NCBI RefSeq assembly: GCF_000196235.1
Contig: NC_008537.1
Location: forward strand, 62,001 to 126,000
Source of the DNA: Arthrobacter sp. FB24
GTDB lineage: Bacteria; Actinomycetota; Actinomycetes; Actinomycetales; Micrococcaceae
Direction of reading: 5' to 3'
Length of the DNA stretch: 64,000 bases
In this document: in pieces, positions 37,534 through 50,289 of the stretch
Layout: every line of letters starts with the position of its first letter
Position numbering within the stretch: position 1 is the stretch's first letter
Position numbers and translations under genes: made by a program
Notes under the pieces: model-generated
Databases searched by the model: none
What the model saw: the letters and a program-made list of their open reading frames with translations, nothing else
Told to the model about the DNA's origin: nothing

Positions 37534-37908
37534 ATGACGATTGATACGAGAAGTGGCACCCGGCTGGAACCGGCCGCCGCGTTGTTCCATTCCCTGGCCG
37601 ACCCCGCCCGGCTTGCCATCGTAAAGCGTATCGCCCGGGGCGAGGCCCGTGTCGGTGACCTGACCCAGGTACTGGGTCTGGCGCAGTCCACTGTCTCCGC
37701 GCACGTGGCCTGCCTGCGGGACTGCGGCCTGGTCACGGGCCGGACGGAAGGCCGGAAGGTGTTCTATTCCCTGACCCGTCCGGAACTGATCGATGTCCTG
37801 GCCCAGGCCGAGATCCTTTTGGCCGCCACCGGCAACGCAGTGAGCCTGTGCCCGACCTACGGCGACGCATCCCGCGACGCCGAAACCACCAAAGAGGAGC
37901 AACTGTGA
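37534..37908 (+). CDS. cmtR: CmtR-like ArsR-family Cd/Pb sensor (second copy)
   Basis: 124 residues. ArsR fold with SAHVACLRDCGLV, equal to the Cys57/Cys61 region of CmtR, and a C-terminal Cys in VSLCPTYG as third ligand. In mycobacteria CmtR controls the ATPase CtpG; here the next gene is a CtpG-like ATPase, overlapped by GTGA, so the regulator-pump pairing is conserved. The ATG at 37534 is used since upstream codons carry the putative operator. Confidence 0.85.
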   Translation: MTIDTRSGTRLEPAAALFHSLADPARLAIVKRIARGEARVGDLTQVLGLAQSTVSAHVACLRDCGLVTGRTEGRKVFYSLTRPELIDVLAQAEILLAATGNAVSLCPTYGDASRDAETTKEEQL

Positions 37909-39857
37909 GCGACGCGTGCGGATGCGGCGATGATAAGCCGGAAACAGAAGAAGGCCAGGAAGAAGCCGAGGGCTTCTGGCAGGTGACCGAGGTCCGCGCG
38001 GCCGCGGTCTCCGGAGTCCTGCTGCTGGTGGCGTGGATTGCTTCGCTGCTCGACGCATCCGAGTGGGTCACCCTGCCGCTGGAGGCCGCGGCGCTGCTGG
38101 TCGCAGCGTGGACGTTCGTTCCCTCCACCCTGCGCCGGCTGGTCAAGGGCAAGATCGGTGTCGGCACGCTGATGACGATCGCGGCCGTGGGCGCCGTCAT
38201 CCTGGGCCAGATCGAGGAAGCGGCGATGCTGGCCTTCCTCTATGCCATCTCCGAGGGCCTGGAAGAATACTCGGTGGCACGCACCCGGCGCGGGCTGCGG
38301 GCGCTGCTGGACCTGGTCCCGTCCGAGGCCAGGGTGCTGCGCAACGGAACCGAAGTTACCGTCTCCCCGTCCGAGCTGGTGCTGGGTGAGACCATGGTCG
38401 TTCGCCCGGGCGAGCGTCTTGCCACCGACGGACGCGTCCTGACCGGGCGCACCTCCCTGGACACCTCAGCCCTGACCGGCGAATCAGTCCCTGTCGAGGC
38501 CGGACCCGGCAGCGAAGTCTACGCGGGGTCGATCAACGGCACCGGTCCGCTCGAGGTCCAGGTCACCAGCACCGCGGAGAACAACTCCCTGGCCCGGATC
38601 GTGCACATAGTTGAGGCCGAGCAGTCCCGCAAGGGCCCCGGCCAGCGCCTGGCCGACTCCATCGCCAAAAAGCTTGTCCCCGGGATCCTGATCGCCGCCG
38701 CGCTCATTGCCGTCTTCGGTTTCATCGTGGGCGAACCGGTCCTGTGGATCGAACGCGCCCTCGTTGTCCTGGTGGCAGCCTCGCCGTGTGCCCTTGCCAT
38801 CTCCGTGCCCGTGACCGTGGTCGCCGCCGTCGGCGCGGCCAGCCGGATGGGCGTCCTGATCAAGGGCGGCGGCGCGCTGGAAACCCTGGGCAAAATCCGC
38901 ACCATCGCCCTGGACAAGACGGGGACCCTGACCCGGAACAAACCCGCCGTGATCGAGGTCGCGGCCACCGCCTCCTCCACCCGGGAACGGGTGCTGGCCG
39001 TCGCCGCCGGCCTGGAAGAACGCAGCGAACACCCGCTCGCCCGGGCCATCCTCGCCGCCACCACGGACCGGGTCACCGTCACCGACCTGAACACGGTTCC
39101 CGGTGCGGGGCTCGAAGGGACCATTGACGGGCACAGTGCCCGGCTCGGCAGGCCCGGATGGATCGCCCCCGGGGAGCTGAAGGAAGCCGTCCGGCGGATG
39201 CAGGCCGGCGGCGCGACAGCGGTCCTGGTCGAGGAGCAATCTGTCCTCATCGGTGCCGTCGCCGTACGGGACGAACTCCGCCCCGAAGCCAGGGCCGTCA
39301 TTGAACGCCTGAACCGCGCCGGCTACACCACCGCCATGCTCACCGGGGATAACCGGCTCACCGCAGAGGCCCTGGGCAAGGCAGCGGGCATCACCGAAGT
39401 CCACGCCGACCTGCGCCCCGAAGACAAGGCGGACATCATCCGCACCCTGAAGGAGCGGCAGCCGACCGCCATGGTCGGGGACGGCGTGAACGACGCCCCG
39501 GCCCTGGCGACCGCCGACACCGGCATCGCGATGGGCGCGATGGGCACCGACGTGGCCATCGAAACCGCCGACATCGCCCTGATGGGCGAGGACCTGCACC
39601 ACCTGCCCCAGGTACTGGAGCACGCCCGCCGTACCCGCCGGATCATGTTCCAGAACGTGGGCCTGTCCCTGGCCCTGATCGCGGTGCTGATCCCGCTGGC
39701 CCTGTTCGGCATCCTGGGGCTGGCAGCCGTGGTCCTGATTCATGAATTGGCCGAAATCGTTGTCATCGCCAACGGCGTTCGCGCCGGCAAGGTCAGCAAG
39801 TACGCCACCATCCCGGTTTCCCGGGACGCCGTCCCCAACCTGGAACCGGCCCGGTGA
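37905..39857 (+). CDS. ctpG: CtpG-like P1B ATPase, cadmium type
   Basis: 650 residues from a GTG with GAGGAG upstream. A short N-terminus with CGCG replaces a full metal-binding domain. Core motifs: TGES at 191-194, SPC at 293-295, DKTGT at 337-341, GDGVND, and HELAEIVVIANGVRAGK in the last helix. SPC with HELAE marks the CtpG branch rather than the HEGST branch at 8006. Regulated by the overlapping CmtR-like gene. Likely exports Cd or a related thiophilic ion. Its stop overlaps the start of lspA (GTGA). Confidence 0.88.
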   Translation: MSDACGCGDDKPETEEGQEEAEGFWQVTEVRAAAVSGVLLLVAWIASLLDASEWVTLPLEAAALLVAAWTFVPSTLRRLVKGKIGVGTLMTIAAVGAVILGQIEEAAMLAFLYAISEGLEEYSVARTRRGLRALLDLVPSEARVLRNGTEVTVSPSELVLGETMVVRPGERLATDGRVLTGRTSLDTSALTGESVPVEAGPGSEVYAGSINGTGPLEVQVTSTAENNSLARIVHIVEAEQSRKGPGQRLADSIAKKLVPGILIAAALIAVFGFIVGEPVLWIERALVVLVAASPCALAISVPVTVVAAVGAASRMGVLIKGGGALETLGKIRTIALDKTGTLTRNKPAVIEVAATASSTRERVLAVAAGLEERSEHPLARAILAATTDRVTVTDLNTVPGAGLEGTIDGHSARLGRPGWIAPGELKEAVRRMQAGGATAVLVEEQSVLIGAVAVRDELRPEARAVIERLNRAGYTTAMLTGDNRLTAEALGKAAGITEVHADLRPEDKADIIRTLKERQPTAMVGDGVNDAPALATADTGIAMGAMGTDVAIETADIALMGEDLHHLPQVLEHARRTRRIMFQNVGLSLALIAVLIPLALFGILGLAAVVLIHELAEIVVIANGVRAGKVSKYATIPVSRDAVPNLEPAR

Positions 39858-40363
39858 GCCAAGCGGCACCGGTCCGGGACAGTGCCCCGTCCCGGCCGTG
39901 GATACGGCGGGGCGGGCTGCTGCTCGGCGCGCTACTGCTCGCCGGAGCCGACTTGCTGATCAAGGCCCAGGCCGAGGCAGGCCTCTCCCGGGGAGAGGTA
40001 ATCGAAACCCCGCTGCTGACAATCAAGCTCCTGTACAACACCGGGGTTGCCTTCAGCCTCGGCGCGACCCTGCCCACCGGTTTTGTCGTGGCCGGTACCG
40101 GGGTCATCATCGCCGCGCTGCTGTCCTGGCTGACGGTCAGCGCCCCGAAGATGTCCAGGACCTCCTTTGCGGGTGGAATCCTTGTTGCCGGCGGCGCCGT
40201 CGGGAACTTCATCGACCGGCTTGACGGGCGCGGGGTCGTGGATTATCTGCACAGCGGATGGTTCCCGACGTTCAACCTCGCCGACGTCTTCGTCACGCTC
40301 GGCGTCGCCGTCCTGGTGCTGGGCATGTTGCGGCCCGGTAAGGACCCGGAGAACGGGACGTGA
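39854..40363 (+). CDS. lspA: lipoprotein signal peptidase LspA
   Basis: 169 residues with four membrane helices. LspA signatures: YNTGVAFSLG, GGAVGNFIDRL and FNLADVFV, which give the two catalytic Asp residues. It cleaves lipoprotein signal peptides after Lgt has modified the Cys. It is co-translated (4-base overlaps) with the ATPase upstream and ccdA downstream. Confidence 0.93.
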   Translation: MSQAAPVRDSAPSRPWIRRGGLLLGALLLAGADLLIKAQAEAGLSRGEVIETPLLTIKLLYNTGVAFSLGATLPTGFVVAGTGVIIAALLSWLTVSAPKMSRTSFAGGILVAGGAVGNFIDRLDGRGVVDYLHSGWFPTFNLADVFVTLGVAVLVLGMLRPGKDPENGT

Positions 40364-41109
40364 GTCTGGGCGGGTTCTTCGCCGAGGGTGTGCAGTCAGG
40401 AGCCCTGCTCCTGGCGGTGCCACTGGCGGTCATCGCCGGTCTCGTCTCGTTCATCTCGCCCTGTGTCCTACCCCTGCTCCCGGGCTATCTGGGCTACGTC
40501 TCCGGTCTGGCCGGAACGGATGAGAAGGCCGCACGCCGGCGGACCACCGCCGGCGTCGGGCTGTTCATCCTCGGTTTCGCCGCGGTTTTCACCCTGTATG
40601 GTGCGGCATTCGGGACCATCGGGCTCTGGCTGGTGAGCTGGAGCGATGTGATCACCCGTGTCCTGGGTGTGGTCGTCATCGTCATGGGTGTGGCCCTGTC
40701 CGGGAAGATCCCGTTCCTGCAGAGCACGGCGAAACTGTCCTGGAAACCGAACACCGGCCTGGCCGGGGCCCCGTTGCTGGGCATCGGATTCGGGCTCGGC
40801 TGGACCCCCTGCATCGGCCCGACCCTCAGTGCCGTCCTGGCGCTGAGCACCACCACCGGCTCGGCCTGGCGCGGGGCGCTGCTCGGTTTCGCCTACTGCA
40901 TCGGCCTGGGCATCCCCTTCCTCCTCGTCGCCCGGGGCTTTGGCTGGGTCACCGGCACCCTGGGCTTCGTCCGCCGGAACATCAGGACCTTCAATCTCGC
41001 AGGAGCCGCGACCCTGATCCTGGTCGGGATCCTGATGGTCTCCGGTGTCTGGACCACCTGGATCCTGAGCCTGCAGAACCTGATCGGAACCTTCACTACT
41101 CCCATCTGA
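40360..41109 (+). CDS. ccdA: CcdA-type thiol transport protein
   Basis: 249 residues, six membrane helices. The redox Cys pair is in SFISPCVLPLLPGYLGY (helix 1) and GWTPCIGPTL (helix 4). CcdA passes electrons from cytoplasmic thioredoxin to extracytoplasmic proteins such as TlpA/ResA. It overlaps lspA by four bases and is in the same operon as the metal ATPase. With TlpA, ResB and CcsB it forms a complete System II reductive branch inside the Tn3-bounded segment. Confidence 0.92.
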   Translation: MSLGGFFAEGVQSGALLLAVPLAVIAGLVSFISPCVLPLLPGYLGYVSGLAGTDEKAARRRTTAGVGLFILGFAAVFTLYGAAFGTIGLWLVSWSDVITRVLGVVVIVMGVALSGKIPFLQSTAKLSWKPNTGLAGAPLLGIGFGLGWTPCIGPTLSAVLALSTTTGSAWRGALLGFAYCIGLGIPFLLVARGFGWVTGTLGFVRRNIRTFNLAGAATLILVGILMVSGVWTTWILSLQNLIGTFTTPI

Positions 41110-41164
41110 CCCACCCTGCGGGTATGCAACCCGCGGCCGGACACACTGAGAGGTACACGGGCCC

Positions 41165-41764
41165 ATGCTTGGCATCATCGCAGCCGCGGCAGCCATGTTC
41201 GCCGCCACGAATATCGACGACATCGTCGTTTTGACCGTCCTGTTCCTGGCCTCCGCTAAAGGCCGGCCCCGGCCCTGGGAGATCGTCGGCGGGCAATACC
41301 TGGGATTCATCACCCTGGTCGGCATCAGCGTCCTGGCCGCCCTTGGGCTGACGCTTGTCCCGGACGAATGGGTCGGCTGGCTCGGCATGGTCCCGCTGGC
41401 CATCGGGGTTATCGGCCTGATCCGTTTCCTGCGCAAACGCGGGGAAGAGGACGAAGAAGGTGCCATCAGTGCGATCGGCCTGCTCAGCGTCGCCGGCATC
41501 ACCATCGCCAACGGCGCGGACAACATCGCCATCTACACCCCGATCTTCCGCACCATGGCGCCTCAGGACACCGTGGTCACCATCGTTGTATTCCTCATCC
41601 TGGTCGCCGTCTGGTGCGCGCTGGGACGTGTTGTAGGCACCCACCCGAAAGTCACCGAGACCCTGGAAAAGATCGAACACTGGCTGGTCCCTGCGGTGTT
41701 CATCGGGCTGGGCCTGTTCATCCTCATCAGCTCCGGGGTCGTGCCCCGGCTGTTCGGCGCCTGA
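41165..41764 (+). CDS. cadD: CadD-family cadmium resistance transporter
   Basis: 199 residues with five to six membrane helices. The family start LGIIAAAAAMFAATNIDDIVV with NIDD, and ANGADNIAIYTPIF in helix 4, are CadD landmarks. It gives cadmium resistance in Gram-positive plasmids, probably by efflux. GAGAGG precedes the ATG; it follows ccdA by 55 bases on the same strand, so it may share the CmtR-controlled operon. Confidence 0.88.
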   Translation: MLGIIAAAAAMFAATNIDDIVVLTVLFLASAKGRPRPWEIVGGQYLGFITLVGISVLAALGLTLVPDEWVGWLGMVPLAIGVIGLIRFLRKRGEEDEEGAISAIGLLSVAGITIANGADNIAIYTPIFRTMAPQDTVVTIVVFLILVAVWCALGRVVGTHPKVTETLEKIEHWLVPAVFIGLGLFILISSGVVPRLFGA

Positions 41765-41812
41765 CCGTCATAAATCTTTTGGGACGAACACAGACCAGGG
41801 TCAGGAGGAATC

Positions 41813-43177
41813 ATGAGGGAAACACCGTTCCGGTTGTTGCTCGATGCCCGCGCCTGCCGGAAAAAGGGCAGCGCTGCGATCCTGCAGCGCCAACGCGAGC
41901 GGCTGGTGGAGATGGTGACATACGCACGGACGTGCTCCCCGTACTACCGCCAGCTCTATCAGGGCCTGCCGGCACGGATCACGGACCCGCGTCTGCTGCC
42001 CGTGACGACAAAGGCCGCACTGATGGCACATTTCGATGACTGGGTCACAGACCCTGCGGTGACCCTGGAGGGAACGCAGTCGTTCGTCGCGGACCCGTCG
42101 CTGCTCGGTGAGAAGTTCCTCAACCGCTACACGGCCGCTACGACATCCGGGACGACCGGCACCCGCGGACTGTTCCTGCTCGACACCCGAACCCTGGCCG
42201 TATCCAAGGCCCTGACGTTCCGCATGCTCAGTTCCTGGCTCACCCCGGCAGACCTCATGGGGATCATCCGCGGGCGCGGGCGGATAGCCATGGTCGTCGC
42301 CACCGGCGGCCACTTCGCCTCAGCAGCAGCCGCAGCCGCGCTACGAAAGGGACCAGCCCGGCACAGCGTGCGCGTGTTCCCGGTCCAGACGCCGATACCG
42401 GACCTCGTCGCTCAGCTGAACAGCTTCCGCCCGGCCCTCCTCGCCCCCTACGCCTCCACTGGCCGGTTGCTGGCATCCGAGCAGGAAGCAGGACGTCTGA
42501 CCATCCAGCCCGTTGCTGTTATTCTCTCGGCCGAGGGACTGCCTGCGGGAGAGTACGCCAGGATCAGCGGAGCGTTTGGGGCGAAGGTCCGGCAGGGCTA
42601 CGCAGCGACTGAATGCCCCTTCCTGAGCTACAGCTGCCAGGAAGGCTGGCTGCACGTCAACAGCGACTGGGCCATCCTGGAACCGGTGGATGCAAACCAT
42701 GAACCCGTCCCGCCCGGGCAGCCCTCGCACACCGTGCTGCTGAGCAACCTGGCCAACCGCATCCAACCCATCCTGCGCTACGACCTCGGCGACAGCGTCA
42801 CCGCAAGGACTGACCCCTGCCGGTGCGGGGACCCGACGCCGGCCATCCACGTGCAGGGACGGAACGCCGAGCTGCTGACCCTCCAAGGCAACCGGCTCGC
42901 CGTCGCAGTGACACCCCTTACGCTGAGTACCGCCCTCGACAGGGTGCAGGGCCTGAGTAAGGGCCAGATCATCCAGACAGGACCCCAGAGCCTCAGCCTC
43001 CGGCTGCAGCCCGCCGCCGGTGCGGATCCTGAGAACGTATGGGAATCCGCCCGGTCCGAAATCACCCGCGCGTTGACCAGTCATGGGCTGGGCAACGTCA
43101 CCATCACCAGGGACGCCGGGCCACCGCTACTCACTCCAGGCGGCAAGCACCGCACAGTCGTCCCGCTGCCCCCGTAA
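41813..43177 (+). CDS. PaaK-like AMP-forming adenylating enzyme
   Basis: 454 residues. It fits the phenylacetate-CoA ligase/coenzyme F390 synthetase-like group: an N-terminal YARTCSPYYRQLY segment, phosphate loop TTSGTTGTRG (near residue 110), GYAATECPFLSYSC as the A5-type motif, YDLGD as A8, and PCRCGDPTP as a CxC element. Such enzymes adenylate a carboxylic acid and usually form a CoA thioester. No CoA-dependent pathway genes lie nearby, so the substrate is unknown. AGGAGG precedes the ATG. It is the last intact gene before the right Tn3 end. Confidence 0.75.
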   Translation: MRETPFRLLLDARACRKKGSAAILQRQRERLVEMVTYARTCSPYYRQLYQGLPARITDPRLLPVTTKAALMAHFDDWVTDPAVTLEGTQSFVADPSLLGEKFLNRYTAATTSGTTGTRGLFLLDTRTLAVSKALTFRMLSSWLTPADLMGIIRGRGRIAMVVATGGHFASAAAAAALRKGPARHSVRVFPVQTPIPDLVAQLNSFRPALLAPYASTGRLLASEQEAGRLTIQPVAVILSAEGLPAGEYARISGAFGAKVRQGYAATECPFLSYSCQEGWLHVNSDWAILEPVDANHEPVPPGQPSHTVLLSNLANRIQPILRYDLGDSVTARTDPCRCGDPTPAIHVQGRNAELLTLQGNRLAVAVTPLTLSTALDRVQGLSKGQIIQTGPQSLSLRLQPAAGADPENVWESARSEITRALTSHGLGNVTITRDAGPPLLTPGGKHRTVVPLPP

Positions 43178-43185
43178 GAGCCATC

Positions 43186-43292
43186 CCATCTTGTCGGCGA
43201 ATACATTGGTGATGCCGACGGCCACTAGAGCATCCAGTCGCCGGGCCCAGGTCCGGCTTGGCCGTTGAGACCCGCGCATATCCAATATCCAT
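43186..43292 (-). pseudogene. resolvase N-terminal fragment
   Basis: Starts ATG, then DIGYARVSTAKPDLG, the catalytic Ser region of a serine recombinase. It then continues one frame over as RRLDALVAVGITNVFADK before being lost. So it is a truncated and frameshifted resolvase start. Confidence 0.7.
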
Positions 43293-43318
43293 CCCCGCAC
43301 CGTACCGGAATTTGCCCC

Positions 43319-43474
43319 GTGACGCTCGGAAATGAGTTCGCGTTCAAACTCGGCCAGGAGCCCGAAGACAAGCTTCCCGGAGGCCCTAGTGGTATCGGAT
43401 GGCGGCGCCCTTCCGATGAGGACCTTCAGACCGATCCCACGCCCGGTCAGGTCATGGACGATGTTGACCAGGTT
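43319..43474 (-). pseudogene. resolvase central fragment
   Basis: One open minus-strand stretch encodes NLVNIVHDLTGRGIGLKVL and then ASGKLVFGLLAEFERELISE, the mid part of a Tn3-type resolvase catalytic domain. It lies before, not after, the N-terminal fragment at 43186, so the two come from different copies or a rearrangement. Confidence 0.7.
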
Positions 43475-43495
43475 GGGCTACACCGCGGCACACCG

Positions 43496-43594
43496 ATGGG
43501 CTGGGAACAGCTCACCGGCGACTACACGTGGCCCCGCCCCAACCAGATCAAACCCGGCAAATACGGGCCACTACCCCGCCCGGCCATACCCTAG
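43496..43594 (+). pseudogene. Tn3 tnpA 3'-terminal fragment
   Basis: Encodes [20 protein letters not shown] to the stop. This closely matches the last residues of the tnpA at 16949 ([17 protein letters not shown]) with several substitutions and a short deletion. It is in the opposite orientation to that gene, next to the right inverted repeat. Confidence 0.85.
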
Positions 43595-43627
43595 CGTCGG
43601 ATATTTCACTTTTTCACACGTCACCCC
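43590..43627 (-). repeat. Tn3-family terminal inverted repeat, right
   Basis: Read inward on the minus strand it begins GGGGTGACGTGTG and continues AAAAAGTGAAATATCCGACG, differing from the left end at only a few positions. No target duplication adjoins it. Confidence 0.85.
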
Positions 43628-43856
43628 TCATTGACGATGTCAGTTTTTGAATTCCAGCGCCCTAGTTAAACGGCTTTAGGATCCCGCCTAGTCAGGTCGT
43701 GAGCAGATCACGTCCGTCGCGGGCGGAACCTATTCAACTCGCGAATTGTTGGCGTCTCGTCGAAATTCTGAGTTGACAGCGCGACGGCTTTGCCGTGGGC
43801 TGAAAGTCACGAACCTTCGGATATTTTGTCGCTCCGTCGTGCCACAATCTCGGAGG

Positions 43857-43871
43857 ACGTGAAGTTCACGT
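43857..43871. promoter_or_regulatory. palindrome upstream of the repeat-peptide gene
   Basis: ACGTGAA-G-TTCACGT is a perfect 15-bp palindrome, 20 bases before the GTG of the peptide gene and just ahead of its AAGGAGG ribosome site. It could be an operator. A TTGACA at about 43773 is a possible -35 upstream, without a clear -10. Confidence 0.45.
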
Positions 43872-43891
43872 TCTCTACATAAGGAGGCACC

Positions 43892-44038
43892 GTGGCAGGC
43901 AAGCCAGAAAATCCGGAACACCCCCAGCACCCGGAACACCCCGAACACCCCCAGCACCCGGAACACCCCGAACACCCGGATACCCCGCAAGGTCCTCCTA
44001 ACCCGCCGGTTCCCCCGGGTCCCCGCCCGGTCGGGTGA
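43892..44038 (+). CDS. 48-residue Pro/Glu/His repeat peptide ending in Gly
   Basis: A GTG start with a perfect AAGGAGG five bases upstream opens a 48-codon frame. Residues 8-28 are seven P-[E/Q]-H triplets. The C-terminal part is Pro/Gly-rich and ends GPRPVG with a terminal Gly. It has no hydrophobic core and cannot be a normal ubiquitin fold. It lies four bases before a gene with E2 and E1 domains, which suggests it is the conjugated modifier or substrate: a C-terminal Gly is what E1 enzymes adenylate. The His/Glu triplets could also bind metal. Short and low in complexity, so gene callers are likely to miss it. Confidence 0.7.
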   Translation: MAGKPENPEHPQHPEHPEHPQHPEHPEHPDTPQGPPNPPVPPGPRPVG

Positions 44039-44042
44039 GCTA

Positions 44043-45821
44043 ATGCCTTTCCTGCCCTGGTGGGAACGCTATGCCGGGCTCCTGCAGTCAGAAATTTCTT
44101 GGCTGCAGGACCTCGGCATTGCCTGCCGAATCGACGAAACCAAGCGTGACGATCACCAGACCTTGACCATGGAGTTGTCCGTACCGGAAACAGTGACCGG
44201 AACAGCCCCTCTGGAGCTGACGGCTGTCTTCCCGGATTTCTATCCGCTCGTTCCGCCGAAAGTCTTCGCCGTGGACCTAGGGATGCCTCATCACTGGAAC
44301 CCGTTCAGCAACGAAGTGTGCCTGTTGGGAACCCCATCGGAAGAATGGGGAACGAATGGGTCACTGGCTCAGCTGCTGAAGGACCAGTTACCTGCAGCGC
44401 TTAAGGCAGGCATGTCCGGCGACGAGCATGCCGACTGGAATGAGAAGCCTCAAGCCGAACCGTTCGGGGCCTACTACAACAGCTACGCAAACTCGGCGAT
44501 GGTCTTTGTCGACGGTTCGTGGACCCTACCTCGGGAAGCTGTTCAAGGGCCGATTGAAGTTCGGCTTGACGGCCCATTTCCTGGGCCTGAGCTGACGCAG
44601 CGGATGCTGGGCGGGGTCCTACGAGTAGGGTCTGATACCGGCCAGGCGCACGCGACGTTGGAAAACCAGATTCAGGAACTTCTGGGCGGCCAGTTGATAC
44701 ATGGCCGTTGGTCCAGGCTGTCGACGCCTGTTGCCGTTGACGATGCCCGAGCCATCTGGGAGGCTGCCGAAAAAGCCGACAGTAGCAGCACGCCCGACCA
44801 GCCCTACGGCCGGCGCAAGATCCAAATACGGGGAGTGGTTTTCCCGGAAGAGTCCGGACCAAGACAAGTCTCCGAGGGGTGGCTATTCGTGCTGAGGGTC
44901 CGCGGCGAGCAACGACAGAACTATAGTAAGAAGCCTCGTTCCGGCCGTTCCCGACCCTTGATGGTTTCTGGGGGCGCAGATGAGTACCACCTGCTCCGCG
45001 CAGGCCGTGTTGGCCGTTCCGACATCAGAGCACGTGTTCCAGACCTTGGCCCGTTGGCAACGAAGAAAGTCGCGCTTGTCGGTGCAGGTGCCATTGGAAG
45101 CGCTGTTGCAGTGCATCTGGGCCGGGCTGGTGTAGGACACCTGAGCCTCATTGATGCTGACGTTCTCGAACCCGGGAACTTGGTCAGGCACACAGCCACC
45201 CTCGAAGGCGTAGGTTTTCTCAAGGCTGTCGCCGTGGCCAGACTGGTCCGGATGGCAGCGCCGTACACCGAGGTCATGTACAACCCTGCCTATGTCGGAG
45301 GTTCACGCCCGCATGGAGAGCCGGACCCGCTACGCCAAATCAGCCAGGATCTGGAATCTTATGACCTGTTGATTGATGCCAGTGCTGATCGTGGTACACA
45401 ACGAATCTTGGCCTTGGTCGCTCGTGAGGTTGACGTGCCCTACCTATCGCTCGAGGCCACGAACGGTGCCTGGGGAGGCTTGGTGGCTTACATCGGGCGG
45501 GACTCTCCATGGTGCCAGTCGTGCCTGGAGTGGTTCCGCTACGATCAGACCATCCCGGACCCGGCACATTCCCCTTCCCCCTACACGCAACCGATCGGAT
45601 GTGCGCAACCGACATTCACCGGCGCCGCGTTCGACTTGGAAGAAGTGAGCCTTCAAGCTGCTCGAACTGCCTCGGCCCGACTAACTTCCGACGACCAAGG
45701 CGCAAAATCAGGTTTCGATGTCGCCGTCTTGAAACTCCGAGACGAAGCAGGTGAACGGACCTTGCCAACATGGACCGGATACAACCTTGGCCGGCACCCG
45801 CGATGCGCGGGCCACAGTTGA
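44043..45821 (+). CDS. E2-E1 fusion, ubiquitin-type conjugation protein
   Basis: 592 residues. Residues 1-125 look like an E2 (UBC) domain: the FPDFYPLVPPKVF beta-sheet/PxxxP segment and HHWNPFSNEVCLLG with C93 as candidate catalytic Cys. A linker domain (about 150-300) is unassigned. Residues 335-590 are a ThiF/E1 domain: nucleotide loop VGAGAIGSAVAVHLGRAG, LIDADVLEPGNLVRH with the Asp/Asn/Arg set, CQSC (491, 494) as probable zinc ligands, and GCAQPTFTGAAFD with C520. The order E2-linker-E1 equals that of CBASS Cap2. GC content is lower than in the neighbours, suggesting separate transfer. Confidence 0.85.
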   Translation: MPFLPWWERYAGLLQSEISWLQDLGIACRIDETKRDDHQTLTMELSVPETVTGTAPLELTAVFPDFYPLVPPKVFAVDLGMPHHWNPFSNEVCLLGTPSEEWGTNGSLAQLLKDQLPAALKAGMSGDEHADWNEKPQAEPFGAYYNSYANSAMVFVDGSWTLPREAVQGPIEVRLDGPFPGPELTQRMLGGVLRVGSDTGQAHATLENQIQELLGGQLIHGRWSRLSTPVAVDDARAIWEAAEKADSSSTPDQPYGRRKIQIRGVVFPEESGPRQVSEGWLFVLRVRGEQRQNYSKKPRSGRSRPLMVSGGADEYHLLRAGRVGRSDIRARVPDLGPLATKKVALVGAGAIGSAVAVHLGRAGVGHLSLIDADVLEPGNLVRHTATLEGVGFLKAVAVARLVRMAAPYTEVMYNPAYVGGSRPHGEPDPLRQISQDLESYDLLIDASADRGTQRILALVAREVDVPYLSLEATNGAWGGLVAYIGRDSPWCQSCLEWFRYDQTIPDPAHSPSPYTQPIGCAQPTFTGAAFDLEEVSLQAARTASARLTSDDQGAKSGFDVAVLKLRDEAGERTLPTWTGYNLGRHPRCAGHS

Positions 45822-46309
45822 CCGAATACATCTGGTTTCCAGTGCCGGTGCTATCGGATCTGGTAGAACAAGCCCGGCTGTATGCTCCTGCGGAGACCGG
45901 AGGGATCCTTGTGGGCCACTACACCGTAACTAAGCCCAATGGACAGCGCGATGCGGTCGTAACTGACGTCATAGGACCGGGGCCAGCAGCCACAAGGTCC
46001 CGAATTGCATTTGAACCGGACACGGAGTGGCAAACAGCCGAACTCTCCAGAGTGTATGCCTTACGGGACCGCCGCGTTTCCTATCTGGGAGACTGGCACA
46101 CACACCCGACCGGGCAACCTGTACCGAGTCTTCGAGACCTGAAAACCCTCGAAACGATAGCCGCTCACACTGCGGCGCGGTGCCCCGAACCCTTCATGGC
46201 CATCCTCGGGAAAGAAGGGATGGAGCAGGATTGGAATATCGCTGTGTGCCAGCACGAGGCTTTGGGGCGGATACGGAACATCATCCCAAGGACTATCCGC
46301 GGGTTTTAG
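45770..46309 (+). CDS. JAB/JAMM-family metalloprotease (deconjugase-like)
   Basis: 179 residues. The JAMM zinc set is complete: E42 in AETGGILVG, then H110, H112, S120 and D123 in GDWHTHPTGQPVPSLRD. This is the Mov34/MPN fold that removes ubiquitin-like modifiers (as Cap3 does in CBASS). It overlaps the E2-E1 gene by 52 bases; a start at 45803 would shorten the overlap to 19 and keep the whole domain. It likely trims or cleaves the conjugates made by the E2-E1 protein. Confidence 0.88.
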   Translation: MDRIQPWPAPAMRGPQLTEYIWFPVPVLSDLVEQARLYAPAETGGILVGHYTVTKPNGQRDAVVTDVIGPGPAATRSRIAFEPDTEWQTAELSRVYALRDRRVSYLGDWHTHPTGQPVPSLRDLKTLETIAAHTAARCPEPFMAILGKEGMEQDWNIAVCQHEALGRIRNIIPRTIRGF

Positions 46310-46805
46310 AGGGCCCTGCCGATCCCGGACTTGTGAGAAGGAAGGGCTGCGTCCTCAATGGCTGCTGGAGCGCATGCCCGGACCGAGGAAATATCTAGTT
46401 GCAAGGTCGTCACTGTGTTCGGCCGGACGTAACGATCGGATGTGCTAGTGGTCGACCCAGACCCGGAACAATCATTGGCTGCCAGTGCATAACCCACACT
46501 GAGCTCCCGTTCGTGTTCGACTCCAGCTTTACGAAAGGTCCATTATCGGTGGCCTAGATAAGAACGCCTTCAGCTCCCCCTTGAGCCGCCGTCGCTTTGC
46601 AAGTGGTGGAACACGGCGATCAAGCGTCCGTAGCCCGGCGGGGCCTCACACCCTGCGCGAGTTGATGCCTTAAGGATTCCTCAATTATCGGGCACACTCT
46701 CTTTCTGGTGGCGTTCGTGCTTCGCTCTCGGGTCAGAAGAGGGGTCAAGCAGCTCTGGCGTTCTGGCACTCCAGTCCTCAGAATTCCTAGAAGGAGGGCC
46801 GAATC
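46310..46805. other. intergenic region after the conjugation cassette
   Basis: No gene is seen in these 496 bases. Base composition is lower in GC than the flanks, with many scattered stops in all frames. A partly symmetric stretch GGTCCATTATCGGTGGCC near 46530 has no known match. This may be the junction where the cassette at 43.9 kb was inserted. Confidence 0.4.
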
Positions 46806-47060
46806 ATGATGAATGGCTGGTATGGAAACGGGTGGGGTCTCGGCGGCTGGATCGTCATGGCCGTGCTGATGCTGATTTTCTGGGGCGGGGTGGTCACGGT
46901 GGTGGTGCTCCTTCTGCGCCGGCCTCACCCCGGTCACGGGTTCTCCGAGCGCCCCGCCCATGATGAGGCCGAGCGGATCCTTAGCGAGCGCTTTGCCCGC
47001 GGGGAGATCGACGAGCAGGAACTAACCGCACGGCGGGCGGCCCTCAGGCGTCGGGAGTGA
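46806..47060 (+). CDS. small membrane protein with SHOCT domain
   Basis: 84 residues. One membrane helix (about residues 14-37) after a Trp/Gly start (NGWYGNGWGLGGW), then a SHOCT motif in the last 30 residues (AERILSERFARGEIDEQEL). SHOCT proteins are often found in copper-resistance operons; role unknown. AGGAGG precedes the tandem ATGs. It overlaps the next gene by four bases. Confidence 0.82.
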   Translation: MMNGWYGNGWGLGGWIVMAVLMLIFWGGVVTVVVLLLRRPHPGHGFSERPAHDEAERILSERFARGEIDEQELTARRAALRRRE

Positions 47061-47626
47061 GCGGACTCTCACGGCGGGGCCAGAACCTCGTGGCTGCCGC
47101 CGCCGTCGTCCTCCTGACTGTGCTGTCCCTGCTGGCCGTCGGGCTCCTGGGCAATCCCGCCGGTCCGGGCGGCGGCGGGCGGCTCGTGGCCGGGTGCACC
47201 GTCCCCCGCCTGGCCGGAACCGAGGTCAACGTCACCCTGACCAACATGGGCGGACCGGTCATGCGCCCCCGGAACGGCATGATGGGCGGGGCGATGCGTC
47301 TAACGGCCGACCGCGGCGCGGTCGCGCGCGGCACCGTCTCCTTCCTGGTGACCAACGCCGGGAGCATCAGCCACGAGATGGTGATCCTGCCCTTGCCCGA
47401 AAACCAGGTTCCCGGCACCCGTCCTGTCGGGCCGGATGGCACCATCGACGAAAGCGGCAGCCTCGGGGAGGCCTCCGGGACCTGCACGGAAGGCTCCGGC
47501 GAGGGGATCCTGCCGGGCACCTCGGGCTGGGTGACTCTCACGTTGCCGCCGGGCCGGTACGAGCTGGCCTGCAACCTCCCCGGTCACTATGCGGCCGGTA
47601 TGTACACCCAGCTCACCGTGACCTGA
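47057..47626 (+). CDS. cupredoxin-like blue copper protein
   Basis: 189 residues. One N-terminal helix (about 12-33), then a cupredoxin beta-barrel. Type-1 copper ligands can be placed: His in SISHEMVILP, and Cys, His and Met in YELACNLPGHYAAGMY. A loop rich in Met/Gly (MRPRNGMMGGAM) lies before the first ligand. It probably carries electrons or copper on the outer face of the membrane, perhaps to the multicopper oxidase at 50372. Starts with GTG overlapping the SHOCT stop. Confidence 0.85.
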   Translation: MSGLSRRGQNLVAAAAVVLLTVLSLLAVGLLGNPAGPGGGGRLVAGCTVPRLAGTEVNVTLTNMGGPVMRPRNGMMGGAMRLTADRGAVARGTVSFLVTNAGSISHEMVILPLPENQVPGTRPVGPDGTIDESGSLGEASGTCTEGSGEGILPGTSGWVTLTLPPGRYELACNLPGHYAAGMYTQLTVT

Positions 47627-47703
47627 GGCTCCTCCGGCACGGCGCGCCTCCGGAGGAAAAGGTAGCCTTGTAACAGCTGTTTCCACCAGGAGGGATGATC
47701 GAC

Positions 47704-48186
47704 GTGACCGGACAGGCCGCCAGCATGATGGTTGCCCTGCGCCTCGTGCGCCTGGTTCTGCTGTCTCTGGCCCTGATGGCCGGCATCCTCGGAATGCACA
47801 TCATGTCTCTCGTACCCATGGACAGCCAGGGCGCGCCAACGGCTGCCGGCGACCACGGCGCAGTGCACATCCTGGCGCCCGCGGAGGACCCCGGACAGGT
47901 GGGCCACCCTGGGTCCAGCGCGGCCTCCGACCATGACCACACCGGATCCCAGCAGCACGGCCCTCAGCTCGACGAAACCTGCAGCGGAGACCACGGGTGC
48001 GCCGGTATGCACACCATGGACGCGTCCTGCACCCCTGCCGCGAAGTCGGCATCACTCGAAGCGCCGCTCCCCGGCATCGGATTCAGCGTGGTTAATCCCC
48101 CGACCGGTGAGCCGCTTCAGACGGCGGCCCTGTCCCGCCGCCCGGTAGGTCCCTCCCCCGGGGATCTCTGCATCAGCCGGACGTAG
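47704..48186 (+). CDS. DUF6153-like small membrane/secreted protein (copy 2)
   Basis: 160 residues from a GTG with AGGAGGG at proper spacing; the ATG at 47695 is too close to that site. N-terminal helix ending GILGMHIM, a His/Asp/Ser-rich centre (SDHDHTG), several Cys, and the C-terminal PGDLCISRT that matches copy 1 at 21139. Likely a metal-binding protein outside the membrane; activity unknown. Confidence 0.72.
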   Translation: MTGQAASMMVALRLVRLVLLSLALMAGILGMHIMSLVPMDSQGAPTAAGDHGAVHILAPAEDPGQVGHPGSSAASDHDHTGSQQHGPQLDETCSGDHGCAGMHTMDASCTPAAKSASLEAPLPGIGFSVVNPPTGEPLQTAALSRRPVGPSPGDLCISRT

Positions 48187-48314
48187 AGAAGAGGCCGCGC
48201 CGTGATACCTCCGGCGCACGCTCCGCTGCCCTTCCGCCTGTGGATGGGCAGCGCGCCATTGACGGCTGCCTCTTTCCCGGGCCTCTCTGCGCCCGGGACA
48301 TTCCGAAGGACCCC

Positions 48315-48944
48315 ATGAAAACCCAGAAGTACCTTGCCCTGTCTGCCACCGCCGTCGCCGCGGCCATTGCCCTCGGCGGCTGCGCATCCGTCTCCAACGG
48401 GACCTCCGCCCCGGTGAATTCCATGAACGGCATGGACCACGGGAGCGCGTCCGGCAGTGCACCCGCCAGTAGCACCCCTCCCGCCGCCGCGGACCACAAC
48501 GCCGCGGACACAATGTTCACCCAGGGCATGATCCCGCACCACCAGCAGGCTGTGGAGATGAGCGACCTGATGCTGGGCAAGAAAGACGTCCCCGCGCCGG
48601 TGAAGGACCTCGCCACCAGGATCAAGGCAACCCAGGGCCCGGAGATCGCCACCATGACCGGCTGGCTCAAGACTTGGAACGAATCCGCGACCATGGCCCC
48701 CGGCCACACCATGGAGGGCATGATGGGCGACGACGACCTCACCCGCCTGAAGGCCGCCCAGGGCACGGAGGCGGCGAAGCTGTTCCTGACCCAGATGATC
48801 GCCCACCACCAGGGTGCTGTCACGATGGCCAAGACCGAGATTGCTGATGGTAAGAACGCCGACGCGGTGGCGCTGGCCAAGAGCATCGTCACGGCCCAGG
48901 AATCCGAGATCAAGGACATGCAGGCCCTGCTGCCGACCCTCTAG
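48315..48944 (+). CDS. DUF305 lipoprotein (copy outside Tn3 segment)
   Basis: 209 residues with lipobox IALGGC, a Met/Ser/Gly linker (MNGMDHGS) and the DUF305 motifs FTQGMIPHHQQAVEMSD and FLTQMIAHHQGAVTMA. Closely related to the copy at 21767 over the whole domain. Ribosome site GAAGGA. A 14-bp stem hairpin follows, as it does after the other copy. Confidence 0.87.
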   Translation: MKTQKYLALSATAVAAAIALGGCASVSNGTSAPVNSMNGMDHGSASGSAPASSTPPAAADHNAADTMFTQGMIPHHQQAVEMSDLMLGKKDVPAPVKDLATRIKATQGPEIATMTGWLKTWNESATMAPGHTMEGMMGDDDLTRLKAAQGTEAAKLFLTQMIAHHQGAVTMAKTEIADGKNADAVALAKSIVTAQESEIKDMQALLPTL

Positions 48945-48959
48945 GCGGCCCATCCCGGC

Positions 48960-49002
48960 CGGGCGTGCCGCCGGTCCCGCACCGGAATCGGCGGCACGCC
49001 CG
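48960..49002 (+). terminator. hairpin after the DUF305 lipoprotein gene (copy 2)
   Basis: CGGGCGTGCCGCCG (48960-48973) and its perfect complement (48989-49002) flank a 15-base loop, 15 bases after the stop. Confidence 0.8.
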
Positions 49003-49078
49003 AGCTGGCCCCACGTCCGCGCCCACCGGGTGCGTCTTCCCGCAATTTCTCATTACATCCCGCTTTCAGGAGCCTCGA

Positions 49079-49990
49079 ATGTCTGTGCTTCGCAAACCCC
49101 GGAAACGCCCGACAGCAATGGTCTCGGCGGCCGTCGCCATAACCTTCCTGCTTCCAGCCTGCAGCCCCGCTCTGCCGTCCCCGCCCATCGCGGGCTCCCC
49201 GCTGAACAATGCACTTCCCGACGCCCACGTCCATGGGCTCAGCGCTGATCCCGCCTCCGGGCAACTGCTCCTGGCTACCCATGAGGGCCTGTTCGACGTC
49301 ACCAGCAGGCCGGCCGTGAAGATCGGACCAACAAATGACCTGATGGGCTACGCCACGGCCGGTGAACCGGAAGTTCTCTTTGCCTCCGGCCATCCCGGTC
49401 CCGGCACCGCGGCACCCGATCCCCTCGGCCTCATCAAGAGCACCGACGGCGGGAAGACGTGGCAACCCCTCTCACGTCAGGGTGAGTCAGACTTCCACGC
49501 ACTCACCGTGACGGGATCCGGGCTCGTAGCCTTCGACGGCACCCTGCGGACCAGCACGGACGGCACCTCGTGGAAAGCCGTCGGGGTGGATTTCCACCCC
49601 GCAGCGCTGGCTGGCCACCCCGGCAGCGCGACAGTCCTCGCCACCGCCCAGGACGGGCTGCGGCGTTCAACCGATGGCGGCGCCACCTGGACGAAGGTCC
49701 CCGGCGCCCCCGTCATCCAGTTCGCCGCCTTTGCCAGCGTCCAGACCGCCGTCGGCGTCGCCCCGGACGGCACCGTCTACCGCTCGGACAACGGCGGAGC
49801 GACCTGGAAGGCCGCAGGCAAGCCGACAGGCCCTGTCCAGGCGGTCGCCGCAAACCAGAGCAGCGACGGAAAGCTCCGCATCTGGGTGGCCACAGCGCAA
49901 GGGTTGGAGACCTCGGCAGACGGCGGCCAGACTTTTTCCGCCTACGATCCCGCCGGTGCGGGCCCAGGCTCGACGGCGGTGACCCGGTGA
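49079..49990 (+). CDS. F510_1955-type beta-propeller lipoprotein (copy 2)
   Basis: 303 residues. The signal ends FLLPAC (lipobox-like). Then DAHVHGLSAD and repeated blades (STDGGKTWQPL, STDGTSWK, STDGGATWTK, SDNGGATWK). Same family and same order of conserved segments as the gene at 22491 (ATHEGLFDVT, PTNDLMGY, SGHPGPG, SRQGESDFHA). CAGGAG precedes the ATG. The stop overlaps the next GTG. Confidence 0.82.
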   Translation: MSVLRKPRKRPTAMVSAAVAITFLLPACSPALPSPPIAGSPLNNALPDAHVHGLSADPASGQLLLATHEGLFDVTSRPAVKIGPTNDLMGYATAGEPEVLFASGHPGPGTAAPDPLGLIKSTDGGKTWQPLSRQGESDFHALTVTGSGLVAFDGTLRTSTDGTSWKAVGVDFHPAALAGHPGSATVLATAQDGLRRSTDGGATWTKVPGAPVIQFAAFASVQTAVGVAPDGTVYRSDNGGATWKAAGKPTGPVQAVAANQSSDGKLRIWVATAQGLETSADGGQTFSAYDPAGAGPGSTAVTR

Positions 49991-50289
49991 CGGGCATCCC
50001 GGAAACCGGCCGGCAGGCGGCAAACGTCCTGCTCGACGCCGTATCGCTCTGGGACGAGAAGCCGGACCCGGAGCTCATCAACCGGGCCCTGGCCAGGCTG
50101 GGCATCATCGGCGCCGTCCAGGCCCGGGGGCCTGCGGCCGCTGACCTGCAAGGCATCGACATCGACGTGACACACCTCGTGGGAGGCGCCACCGTGGCGA
50201 TCAAATGGCTGGTCGCCCAGCTCGCGGCGGCCCGCGGCGTCGAGGAATCGTCCATCATCTCCGAGCTTCGGCACCACTTCGATACCTGA
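49987..50289 (+). CDS. small helical protein, unknown
   Basis: 100 residues from a GTG that overlaps the beta-propeller gene's TGA (GTGA). Helical, soluble, without Cys or membrane segments; DIDVTHLVGGATVAIKWLVAQ is the most hydrophobic stretch. No family recognised. The tight coupling to the propeller gene and the normal codon bias support it being real. Confidence 0.6.
   Translation: MTGIPETGRQAANVLLDAVSLWDEKPDPELINRALARLGIIGAVQARGPAAADLQGIDIDVTHLVGGATVAIKWLVAQLAAARGVEESSIISELRHHFDT

What the first reader, a model, noticed from the sequence alone, without database searches (positions are those of the whole stretch)
43892..46309. Ubiquitin-type conjugation cassette with a repeat peptide instead of a ubiquitin fold
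Three tightly linked genes encode a 48-residue peptide ending in Gly, an E2-E1 fusion (C93 E2-like Cys; ThiF loop; CQSC; C520) and a JAMM protease with a complete E/H/H/S/D set. In known bacterial systems the modified partner is a CD-NTase (type II CBASS) or a ubiquitin-like protein (Bil and related operons). Neither is present here: the first gene is a low-complexity P-[E/Q]-H repeat. The cassette sits just outside a Tn3 end in lower-GC DNA, like a defence island insert. Seen: the domains and gene order. Known: E2-E1 and JAB pairs act together on C-terminal Gly. Inferred: the peptide is the modifier, and the role may be antiphage defence.
Basis: partly seen in the sequence, partly recalled or inferred. 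Interest (0 to 1): 0.95.

Follow-up and report, generated by a model that had tools for sequence, protein, structure and literature searches.

The report
Proline-rich peptide modifier with ubiquitin enzymes
Bacteria of at least five phyla carry a gene trio in which a short proline-rich peptide with a Val-Gly tail sits directly before a ubiquitin-type E2-E1 fusion enzyme and a JAMM-family protease; the peptide is predicted to be attached to other proteins by that glycine, which would make it a ubiquitin-like tag without the ubiquitin fold, likely used against phages.

Summary
Window 43892-46309 encodes a 48-aa peptide (…PVPPGPRPVG), a Prok-E2_B/ThiF fusion and a Prok-JAB protease. In 27 of 28 loci with a readable E2-E1 start, a Pro-rich ORF ending in VG (plus 0-3 residues) abuts the E2-E1 gene; in the 28th the tail is there but the frame runs on. 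Control genes: 1 of 557; distant E2-E1 genes: 0 of 8. Tail codons change mostly silently (113 to 16). Consensus tail: P-[K/R]-P-P-x-x-R-x-V-G. E2 Cys93 and E1 Cys520 hold in all complete close relatives. The closest enzymes are Cap2/Cap3 of type II CBASS, where a nucleotidyltransferase fills the peptide's slot; SMODS nucleotidyltransferases are absent from the window's genome and from 17 of 18 carrier genomes or plasmids. In 8 of 26 loci a divergent WYL-domain gene lies beside the cassette; the one compared is CapW/BrxR-like. Conjugation, targets and defence are inferred. I found no description in the library held; key papers and preprints are not in it.

The parts
43881..43887 (+). Shine-Dalgarno-like AAGGAGG before the peptide gene
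   Evidence: sequence
43892..44038 (+). Pro-rich peptide gene, 48 aa (GTG start), predicted modifier
   Evidence: same slot and tail in 27 of 28 loci; silent-change excess
44006..44035 (+). conserved tail P-V-P-P-G-P-R-P-V-G of the peptide, ending in the Gly predicted to be activated
44043..45821 (+). E2-E1 fusion enzyme, 592 aa (Prok-E2_B + middle region + ThiF/E1), starts 4 nt after the peptide's stop
   Evidence: (model pLDDT 92)
44100..44504 (+). E2 domain (Prok-E2_B, residues 20-154)
44319..44321 (+). E2 catalytic Cys93 (predicted)
45054..45524 (+). E1 adenylation domain core (ThiF, residues 338-494) with G-x-G-x-x-G, D371, R382, K394, D445 conserved
45513..45524 (+). C491-x-x-C494, predicted zinc site with C588
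   Evidence: zinc role by analogy to MoeB/ThiF, recalled
45600..45602 (+). E1 catalytic Cys520 (predicted), aligned with residue 548 of E. cloacae Cap2, which is Ala in 7to3
45770..46309 (+). JAB/JAMM protease, 179 aa, start overlaps the end of the E2-E1 gene
45893..46138 (+). span of JAMM active-site residues E42, H110, H112, S120, D123

Best explanation
This is a three-gene cassette, found in at least five bacterial phyla, in which a short Pro-rich peptide with a conserved R-x-V-G tail is predicted to be the modifier of a ubiquitin-type conjugation system: the E1 half of the fusion enzyme would adenylate the terminal Gly and pass it to E1 Cys520 and then E2 Cys93, which would likely attach it to amines of target proteins, and the JAMM protease would remove it again. 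Shown: the genes, their order, the cross-phylum conservation of peptide, tail and catalytic residues, selection on the peptide, and kinship of the enzymes to Cap2/Cap3 of type II CBASS. Inferred: the chemistry, the trimming by the JAMM protease of forms that carry GR, A or QQ after the Gly, and the use. The most likely use is a mobile phage-defence or DNA-damage-responsive cassette: its nearest kin are CBASS enzymes, eight loci carry a divergent WYL-domain gene, and the one of these compared with the PDB resembles CapW/BrxR. By its place in the tree the cassette probably arose from a CBASS-like operon in which the nucleotidyltransferase, which Cap2 conjugates by its own C-terminal tail, was replaced by a free-standing tail-like peptide.
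For: Peptide in the same place (gap -8 to +6 nt) in 27 of 28 loci, 1 of 557 control ORFs; six further plasmid loci show it, four at the annotated start and two, by eye, upstream of a mis-set or broken start; 0 of 8 distant E2-E1 genes have it, and 7 of those 8 operons hold a nucleotidyltransferase. 113 silent against 16 replacing codon changes in the tail over 14 pairs (not independent; 3 pairs identical); the other frames give 4/118 and 0/120. Tail P-[K/R]-P-P-x-x-R-x-V-G, 22 of 25 peptides end exactly at Gly. Over 76 aligned relatives, E2 H84/C93 are missing only in P0054 (no E2 part) and E1 C520 only in the fragment P0007 and the distant P0055; the JAMM set is invariant in 16 rows. Model at pLDDT 92 with Cap2-CdnD (7to3) as best Foldseek match. 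Cap2 leads the C-terminal tail of a non-ubiquitin substrate into the E1 site (PMC12355090, passages) and the CBASS cyclase ends in Gly or Ala (PMC10097602, passages), so this enzyme kind accepts substrates without a beta-grasp fold. No SMODS nucleotidyltransferase in the window's genome and in 17 of 18 carrier genomes or plasmids. WYL-domain gene in 8 of 26 loci (6 scanned, 6 match Pfam WYL); the one compared with the PDB matches CapW 2.9e-32 and BrxR 9.5e-21.
Against: No biochemistry. One locus (L023) has a peptide frame that does not stop after the Gly. P0054, a relative without the E2 part, has lost C491, C494 and C588; whether it has a peptide could not be read. The WYL-domain gene was not found in 18 of 26 loci, the window included. 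Neighbourhoods are mixed: metal-resistance genes beside the window, L012 and L016; I placed a restriction or methylase gene within 5 kb of only two loci (L021, L035; the tallies show 25 families only). No effector or target gene recurs, so the outcome of conjugation is unknown. One carrier genome (L022) does hold a SMODS protein. E1-like enzymes can also act on peptides without E2 transfer (MccB-MccA is among the fold matches). The criterion was set after looking at the loci.
Confidence: 0.74

Rival explanations
1. Microcin C-like peptide pathway: the E1-like domain adenylates the C-terminus of the peptide to make a small active compound, and conjugation to proteins plays no part.
Against: An E2 domain with conserved His84/Cys93 and a downstream ORF with the H-[T/S]-H-P motif of JAMM proteases in 27 of 30 loci (not in L017, L037, L041, which are broken or truncated) are not needed for that; no exporter, peptidase or immunity gene recurs within about 5 kb of 26 loci; MccB rows align to the E1 half.
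Confidence: 0.1
2. The ORF is a regulatory leader: ribosome stalling on its proline runs controls translation of the E2-E1 gene, and the peptide itself does nothing.
For: It lies 5' of and close to the E2-E1 start (gap -8 to +6 nt); 12 of 25 peptides contain PPP.
Against: 13 of 25 have no PPP, the window's included; the constant part is the last ten residues and the Gly, not a stall motif; lengths run from 39 to 88 aa; the same slot in CBASS holds the protein that Cap2 conjugates.
Confidence: 0.05
3. The peptide is a conjugated modifier, but the system serves metal handling: His/Pro-rich repeats bind metal and the cassette belongs to metal-resistance islands.
For: The window, Hymenobacter and Sphingobium loci sit beside copper/cadmium or metal-efflux genes; five Burkholderiaceae peptides hold 10-23 His.
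Against: Four peptides have one His only (L013, L015, L017, L026); the annotated flanks of L013, L014, L015 and L017 show no gene named for metals (several genes there are only hypothetical proteins); the genome loci were not examined gene by gene for this.
Confidence: 0.1
4. The cassette is a degenerate CBASS: the peptide is a relic and the true partner is a CD-NTase or ubiquitin-like protein encoded elsewhere.
For: The E2-E1 clade nests among Cap2 proteins of CBASS operons; one carrier genome (L022) holds a SMODS protein.
Against: No SMODS protein in the window's genome or in 17 of 18 carrier genomes or plasmid records (for six of these only the plasmid was searched); strong selection on the peptide over several phyla does not fit a relic.
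Confidence: 0.03

Closest known systems
Type II CBASS (CD-NTase, Cap2 E2-E1, Cap3 JAB)
   Same: E2-E1 fusion of the same order, adjacent JAB protease, partner encoded directly upstream with a C-terminal Gly/Ala tail; best Foldseek match is Cap2-CdnD
   Different: no CD-NTase in the cassette and no recurring effector; a 39-88 aa Pro-rich peptide stands in the CD-NTase slot; E1 has a C-x-x-C/C588 set where the Cap2 chain aligned has none at C491/C494
6A-MBL system (NCBIfam NF058523, E2-E1-JAB with metallo-beta-lactamase)
   Same: E2-E1-JAB kinship (1e-25 on the fusion, 4.9e-20 on the JAB)
   Different: below the family's cut-off (90.4 of 320 bits), JAB on a separate gene, no metallo-beta-lactamase family recurring nearby; one MBL-fold gene is annotated about 3 kb downstream in L016
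Bil and Bub operons (bacterial ubiquitin-like systems)
   Same: modifier with C-terminal Gly plus E1, E2 and JAB (recalled); CapW also accompanies Bub operons (PMC13373217, passages)
   Different: their modifiers are beta-grasp proteins (recalled; for related operons Iyer 2006, section 14); Bub E1 structures rank below Cap2 and align with high rmsd (9eav rank 14, E 5e-14, rmsd 18.8)
Pup / pupylation of Actinobacteria
   Same: short, disordered protein used as a modifier, in part processed at its C-terminus (recalled)
   Different: Pup is ligated by PafA and removed by Dop (PMC8599861, abstract in listing), not by E1/E2 and JAMM
MccB-MccA (microcin C)
   Same: E1-like enzyme acting on the C-terminus of a short peptide (fold matches; activity recalled)
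   Different: no E2, no JAMM; product is a modified peptide (recalled)

Membership tests
Type II CBASS | CD-NTase gene in the operon | tested here: not met
   no such family recurring near 26 loci; no SMODS match in the window's genome and in 17 of 18 carrier genomes or plasmids; controls rang in both
Type II CBASS | Cap2-type E2-E1 fusion with both catalytic cysteines | tested here: met
Type II CBASS | Cap3-type JAB protease | tested here: met
   Prok-JAB 2.2e-18, invariant JAMM residues; but the NCBIfam Cap3 model gives only 46.8 of 200 bits
Type II CBASS | cyclic-nucleotide-dependent effector (SAVED, patatin and the like) | tested here: inconclusive
   no effector family recurs in 26 loci and none is annotated beside L012-L017; a SAVED search of the window's genome gave none but its control was silent; seven of eight control operons have one
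Bil / Bub / polyUbl operons | beta-grasp ubiquitin-like protein as modifier | tested here: not met
   the gene in the modifier slot encodes a 39-88 aa Pro-rich peptide, no Cys in 25 of 25, no aromatic in 23 of 25; no Pfam match for the window's and three other peptides. A ubiquitin-like protein elsewhere in the genome was not excluded (control silent)
Ubiquitin-type conjugation (mechanism) | modifier activated at a C-terminal Gly by E1 and passed to E2 Cys | not testable with these tools
   residues present and conserved; chemistry not tested
Pupylation | PafA-type ligase | not tested
   no further ligase gene recurs beside the cassette; not searched genome-wide
6A-MBL | metallo-beta-lactamase gene next to a fused E2-E1-JAB protein | tested here: not met
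   JAB is a separate ORF; no recurring MBL gene

The most novel reading that the evidence does not exclude
A new class of ubiquitin-type modifier: a free-standing, fold-less Pro-rich peptide with a P-P-x-x-R-x-V-G tail, used by a dedicated E2-E1 fusion and JAMM protease. It would be to CBASS conjugation what Pup is to ubiquitin: the tail alone, cut loose from any folded domain, became the tag. It is spread over Actinomycetota, Pseudomonadota, Bacteroidota, Acidobacteriota and Planctomycetota, with a run-on form in Chloroflexota, and gene callers mostly passed it by because the gene is so short and repetitive.
Probability: 0.7. Interest if true: 0.95.

Novelty: new variant of a known kind. Interest (0 to 1): 0.88.

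Why it matters
The well-studied E1-E2 modifiers are beta-grasp proteins, and the CBASS exception is a folded enzyme of about 400 residues (PMC12355090, passages). An E1-E2-JAMM cassette whose modifier is a disordered 39-88 residue peptide would show how little of ubiquitin is needed for ubiquitin-type chemistry, would give a minimal genetically encoded tagging system of three small genes, and would add a likely defence cassette whose modifier no Pfam, NCBIfam or PADLOC model that I scanned recognises. Its tail motif makes it directly searchable and testable.

Tried and rejected
Viral contigs: two scans with alignments of the E2-E1 gave no relative; phage records none; similarity of the window's DNA to plasmid records none. 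So no sign that phages carry it. A first genome-contig scan with the single protein found no relative; the alignment query found 28 loci. Seven of these (L037, L041-L046) hold truncated E2-E1 pieces and were left out before counting.

A metal-binding role for the His-rich repeats was considered and set aside as not general. A stall-leader role was set aside because 13 of 25 peptides lack PPP. Docking of peptide to enzyme could not be run: the structure tool takes one chain and the two genes of the window are out of frame. Defence-island tally: 74 neighbouring ORFs of at least 170 aa from 15 of the 21 genome loci were scanned (79 were listed; the five WYL genes among them were taken out; L020, L025, L030, L034, L036 and L040 were not scanned). 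The tallies show the first 25 families only; I then placed type ISP restriction near L021, a cytosine methylase near L035 and a CHAT protein near L024 (10 ORFs scanned, three without a match). No strong island signal. A SAVED search of the window's genome and a Multi_ubiq search gave none, both with silent controls, and show nothing.

Literature: ten searches listed no paper that I recognised as describing such a peptide; I judged by titles, abstract starts and the passages below. Seen: section 14 and passages of PMC1779556, passages of PMC10097602, PMC11354881, PMC11153139, PMC13373217, PMC12355090, PMC10910872. Not held or not seen: Gong et al. 2025, Ye et al. 2026, later papers by Burroughs, Iyer and Aravind, and all preprints; the peptide may be mentioned there.
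Full report
What is there. The window lies in a 159,538-base contig of a four-contig, 5.07-Mb genome. A genome of the same genus, G003, carries a related cassette on a 50,888-base contig that shares its sequence with locus L034, titled Pseudarthrobacter enclensis, so the host is a Pseudarthrobacter/Arthrobacter-type actinobacterium. The window encodes three genes on the plus strand: a 48-residue peptide at 43892-44038 with an AAGGAGG four bases before its GTG start, a 592-residue E2-E1 fusion at 44043-45821, and a 179-residue JAMM protease at 45770-46309. Pfam finds Prok-E2_B (4e-39), ThiF (6.8e-19) and Prok-JAB (2.2e-18), and nothing in the peptide. PADLOC finds its E1-E2 and JAB models on the enzymes and nothing on the peptide.

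The family. A protein search gave 30 other proteins at 0.001 or better, 25 of which I aligned as the family; a second search with a 32-row alignment added 22. Loci with DNA context came from plasmids, one genome for each GTDB species and whole-genome searches. The system is rare: of 149 relatives of the window's genome 8 match at 1e-20, only the window's own and G003 over most of the length; of 396 genomes drawn from its phylum 3 match at 1e-40. Of those three, one is the window's own, one (G311) is the locus also found as L026, and one (G156) has, read by eye, a CD-NTase-like protein upstream and so looks like CBASS.

The peptide is conserved. Seven relatives looked at first (L005 and six plasmid loci) all had an ORF rich in proline directly before the E2-E1, with P-V-G, K-V-G or Q-V-G at or two residues before its end. 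After a look at the genome loci I wrote a criterion (ORF of at least 20 codons on the same strand, stop within 60 nt of the E2-E1 start, at least 20% Pro in the last 30 residues, V-G within three residues of the end) and applied it to the window, six plasmid loci and the 21 genome loci with a readable E2-E1 start: 27 of 28 meet it, at gaps from -8 to +6 nt. The 28th, L023 from a Chloroflexota metagenome genome, has the tail P-P-K-P-P-K-D-R-E-V-G but its frame runs on into the E2-E1 gene. Among 557 other ORFs of at least 120 aa in the same sequences, one meets the criterion. Some of the 28 are close kin (L021/L025 and L032/L040 most of all). Since the criterion came after the first looks, I fetched six more plasmid members: four meet it at the annotated start; in the other two (L053, L054) the peptide lies upstream of a start set too far in, or of a broken E2-E1. 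Most of these six are close kin of the earlier plasmids. The phyla with a peptide that meets the criterion are Actinomycetota, Pseudomonadota, Bacteroidota (L012), Acidobacteriota (L022, L031) and Planctomycetota (L039, whose E2-E1 is split over two frames).

Control operons. Eight more distant E2-E1 genes from plasmids (L056-L063) have no such peptide (0 of 8); seven of the eight operons carry an annotated nucleotidyltransferase together with a SAVED or patatin gene, that is, type II CBASS; the eighth (L062) is another E1/JAB operon. A search with Prok-E2_B itself in 396 genomes hit 3; the two that are not the window have, read by eye, CD-NTase-like proteins ending in RSG and RSA directly upstream. 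So the peptide occupies the slot that CBASS gives to the conjugated nucleotidyltransferase. That enzyme is not simply elsewhere: SMODS finds nothing in the window's genome, and in 12 carrier genomes and 6 carrier plasmids searched whole it finds one protein, in the genome of L022; the control genomes rang both times.

Selection. In the last 22 codons up to the Gly, 14 pairs of loci (some loci used twice, three pairs identical) differ by 113 silent and 16 replacing codons; read in the other two frames the same differences are 4 silent/118 replacing and 0/120; random single changes would be silent in 29%. The frame behaves as a translated one whose protein sequence is under strong selection.

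Anatomy of the peptide. In 25 peptides (one for each of the 28 loci except L023, L025 and L040; start codons chosen by me) length is 39-88 aa, Pro 14-48%, no Cys in any, no Phe/Trp/Tyr in 23. The N-terminal part varies in repeats: H-P-E in the window and several other Actinomycetota, K-D-P-K-E-P in L026, poly-His in Burkholderiaceae, P/G in Iamia and Hymenobacter. The last ten residues follow P-[K/R]-P-P-x-x-R-x-V-G: K or R at the second place in 18 of 25, the P-P pair complete in 23, Arg at -3 in 23, V-G in all 25 (this last by the criterion). 22 of 25 end at the Gly; Hymenobacter adds QQ, two Acidobacteriota add GR and A. Such tails recall ubiquitin-like precursors that are trimmed; trimming by the JAMM protein is an inference.

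Neighbours. Clustering 321 ORFs from 26 loci leaves only three families in three or more loci: the E2-E1, the JAB, and in eight loci (all Pseudomonadota) a divergent gene just upstream; six of the eight were scanned and all six match Pfam WYL. One of them (L028) matches solved WYL proteins: 7qfz 5.6e-46, CapW 2.9e-32, BrxR 9.5e-21. According to PMC13373217 (passages) CapW/BrxR repress neighbouring immune operons until single-stranded DNA appears. Some rhizobial and the Sphingobium plasmid copies sit beside a RES/Xre toxin-antitoxin pair instead. The window, Hymenobacter and Sphingobium copies lie in metal-resistance surroundings.

Reading. The simplest account is a conjugation cassette in which the peptide is the tag. 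It works like a ubiquitin system and like CBASS conjugation, but it is not CBASS (no nucleotidyltransferase in the cassette) and not Bil/Bub (no beta-grasp protein in the modifier slot). Not shown: activation, transfer, targets, removal, and any effect on phages. The peptides are not covered by the libraries scanned: the window's has no Pfam or PADLOC match and one NCBIfam match at 0.087 far below its cut-off; three relatives have no Pfam match and five no NCBIfam match at 0.1. In the 12 plasmid records of the family the gene table, which PLSDB gives incompletely, lists the peptide only for Hymenobacter.

Limits. The library held lacks preprints and several key papers, so 'not described' means not found in ten searches. 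Counts of loci include close relatives; there are 24 distinct tails (last 22 residues) among the 31 loci listed.

Noticed in passing
window 37848-50000: Metal-resistance stretch around the cassette: P-type ATPase 37848-39857, signal peptidase II 39854-40363, DsbD/CcdA-like 40360-41109, cadmium transporter 41165-41764, sulfocyanin-like 47057-47626, DUF305 48240-48944.
   Followed up: partly
L027, L028, L029, L030, L032, L035, L036, L038, about 3.5-4.7 kb (L027 462-1325), minus strand: Divergent gene just upstream of the peptide in eight Pseudomonadota loci; six scanned, all WYL-domain; the one compared (L028) is CapW/BrxR-like.
   Followed up: yes
L012-L017, L050-L055: The peptide gene is listed in 1 of 12 plasmid records (Hymenobacter; PLSDB's table is incomplete); in L016 the E2-E1 start is set inside the peptide gene.
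   Followed up: yes
L021 and L025: Upstream ORF with the peptide and JAB ORF read the same in contigs titled Blastococcus aggregatus and Klenkia terrae: recent transfer, mislabelling or mixed assembly; the 11.8-kb loci are not identical.
   Followed up: partly
L037, L041-L046: Truncated E2-E1 pieces (mostly the E1 C-terminal part) in several genomes, one of them (L046) in the same assembly title as the intact L026.
   Followed up: no
L021 9078-11815, L035 10503-11719, L024 8990-11788: Type ISP restriction enzyme, cytosine methylase and CHAT-domain protein within 5 kb of cassettes.
   Followed up: partly
   Followed up: partly
L014, L016, L054, L055: RES-domain toxin and Xre-type antitoxin genes divergent from the cassette on rhizobial and Sphingobium plasmids.
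   Followed up: no
genome of L022 (G537:C89:63934-64431): The one carrier genome with a SMODS nucleotidyltransferase (3.2e-19); its operon was not read.
   Followed up: no
window 41813-43177: Adenylate-forming enzyme related to F390 synthetase / phenylacetate-CoA ligase, below the family cut-offs.
   Followed up: no
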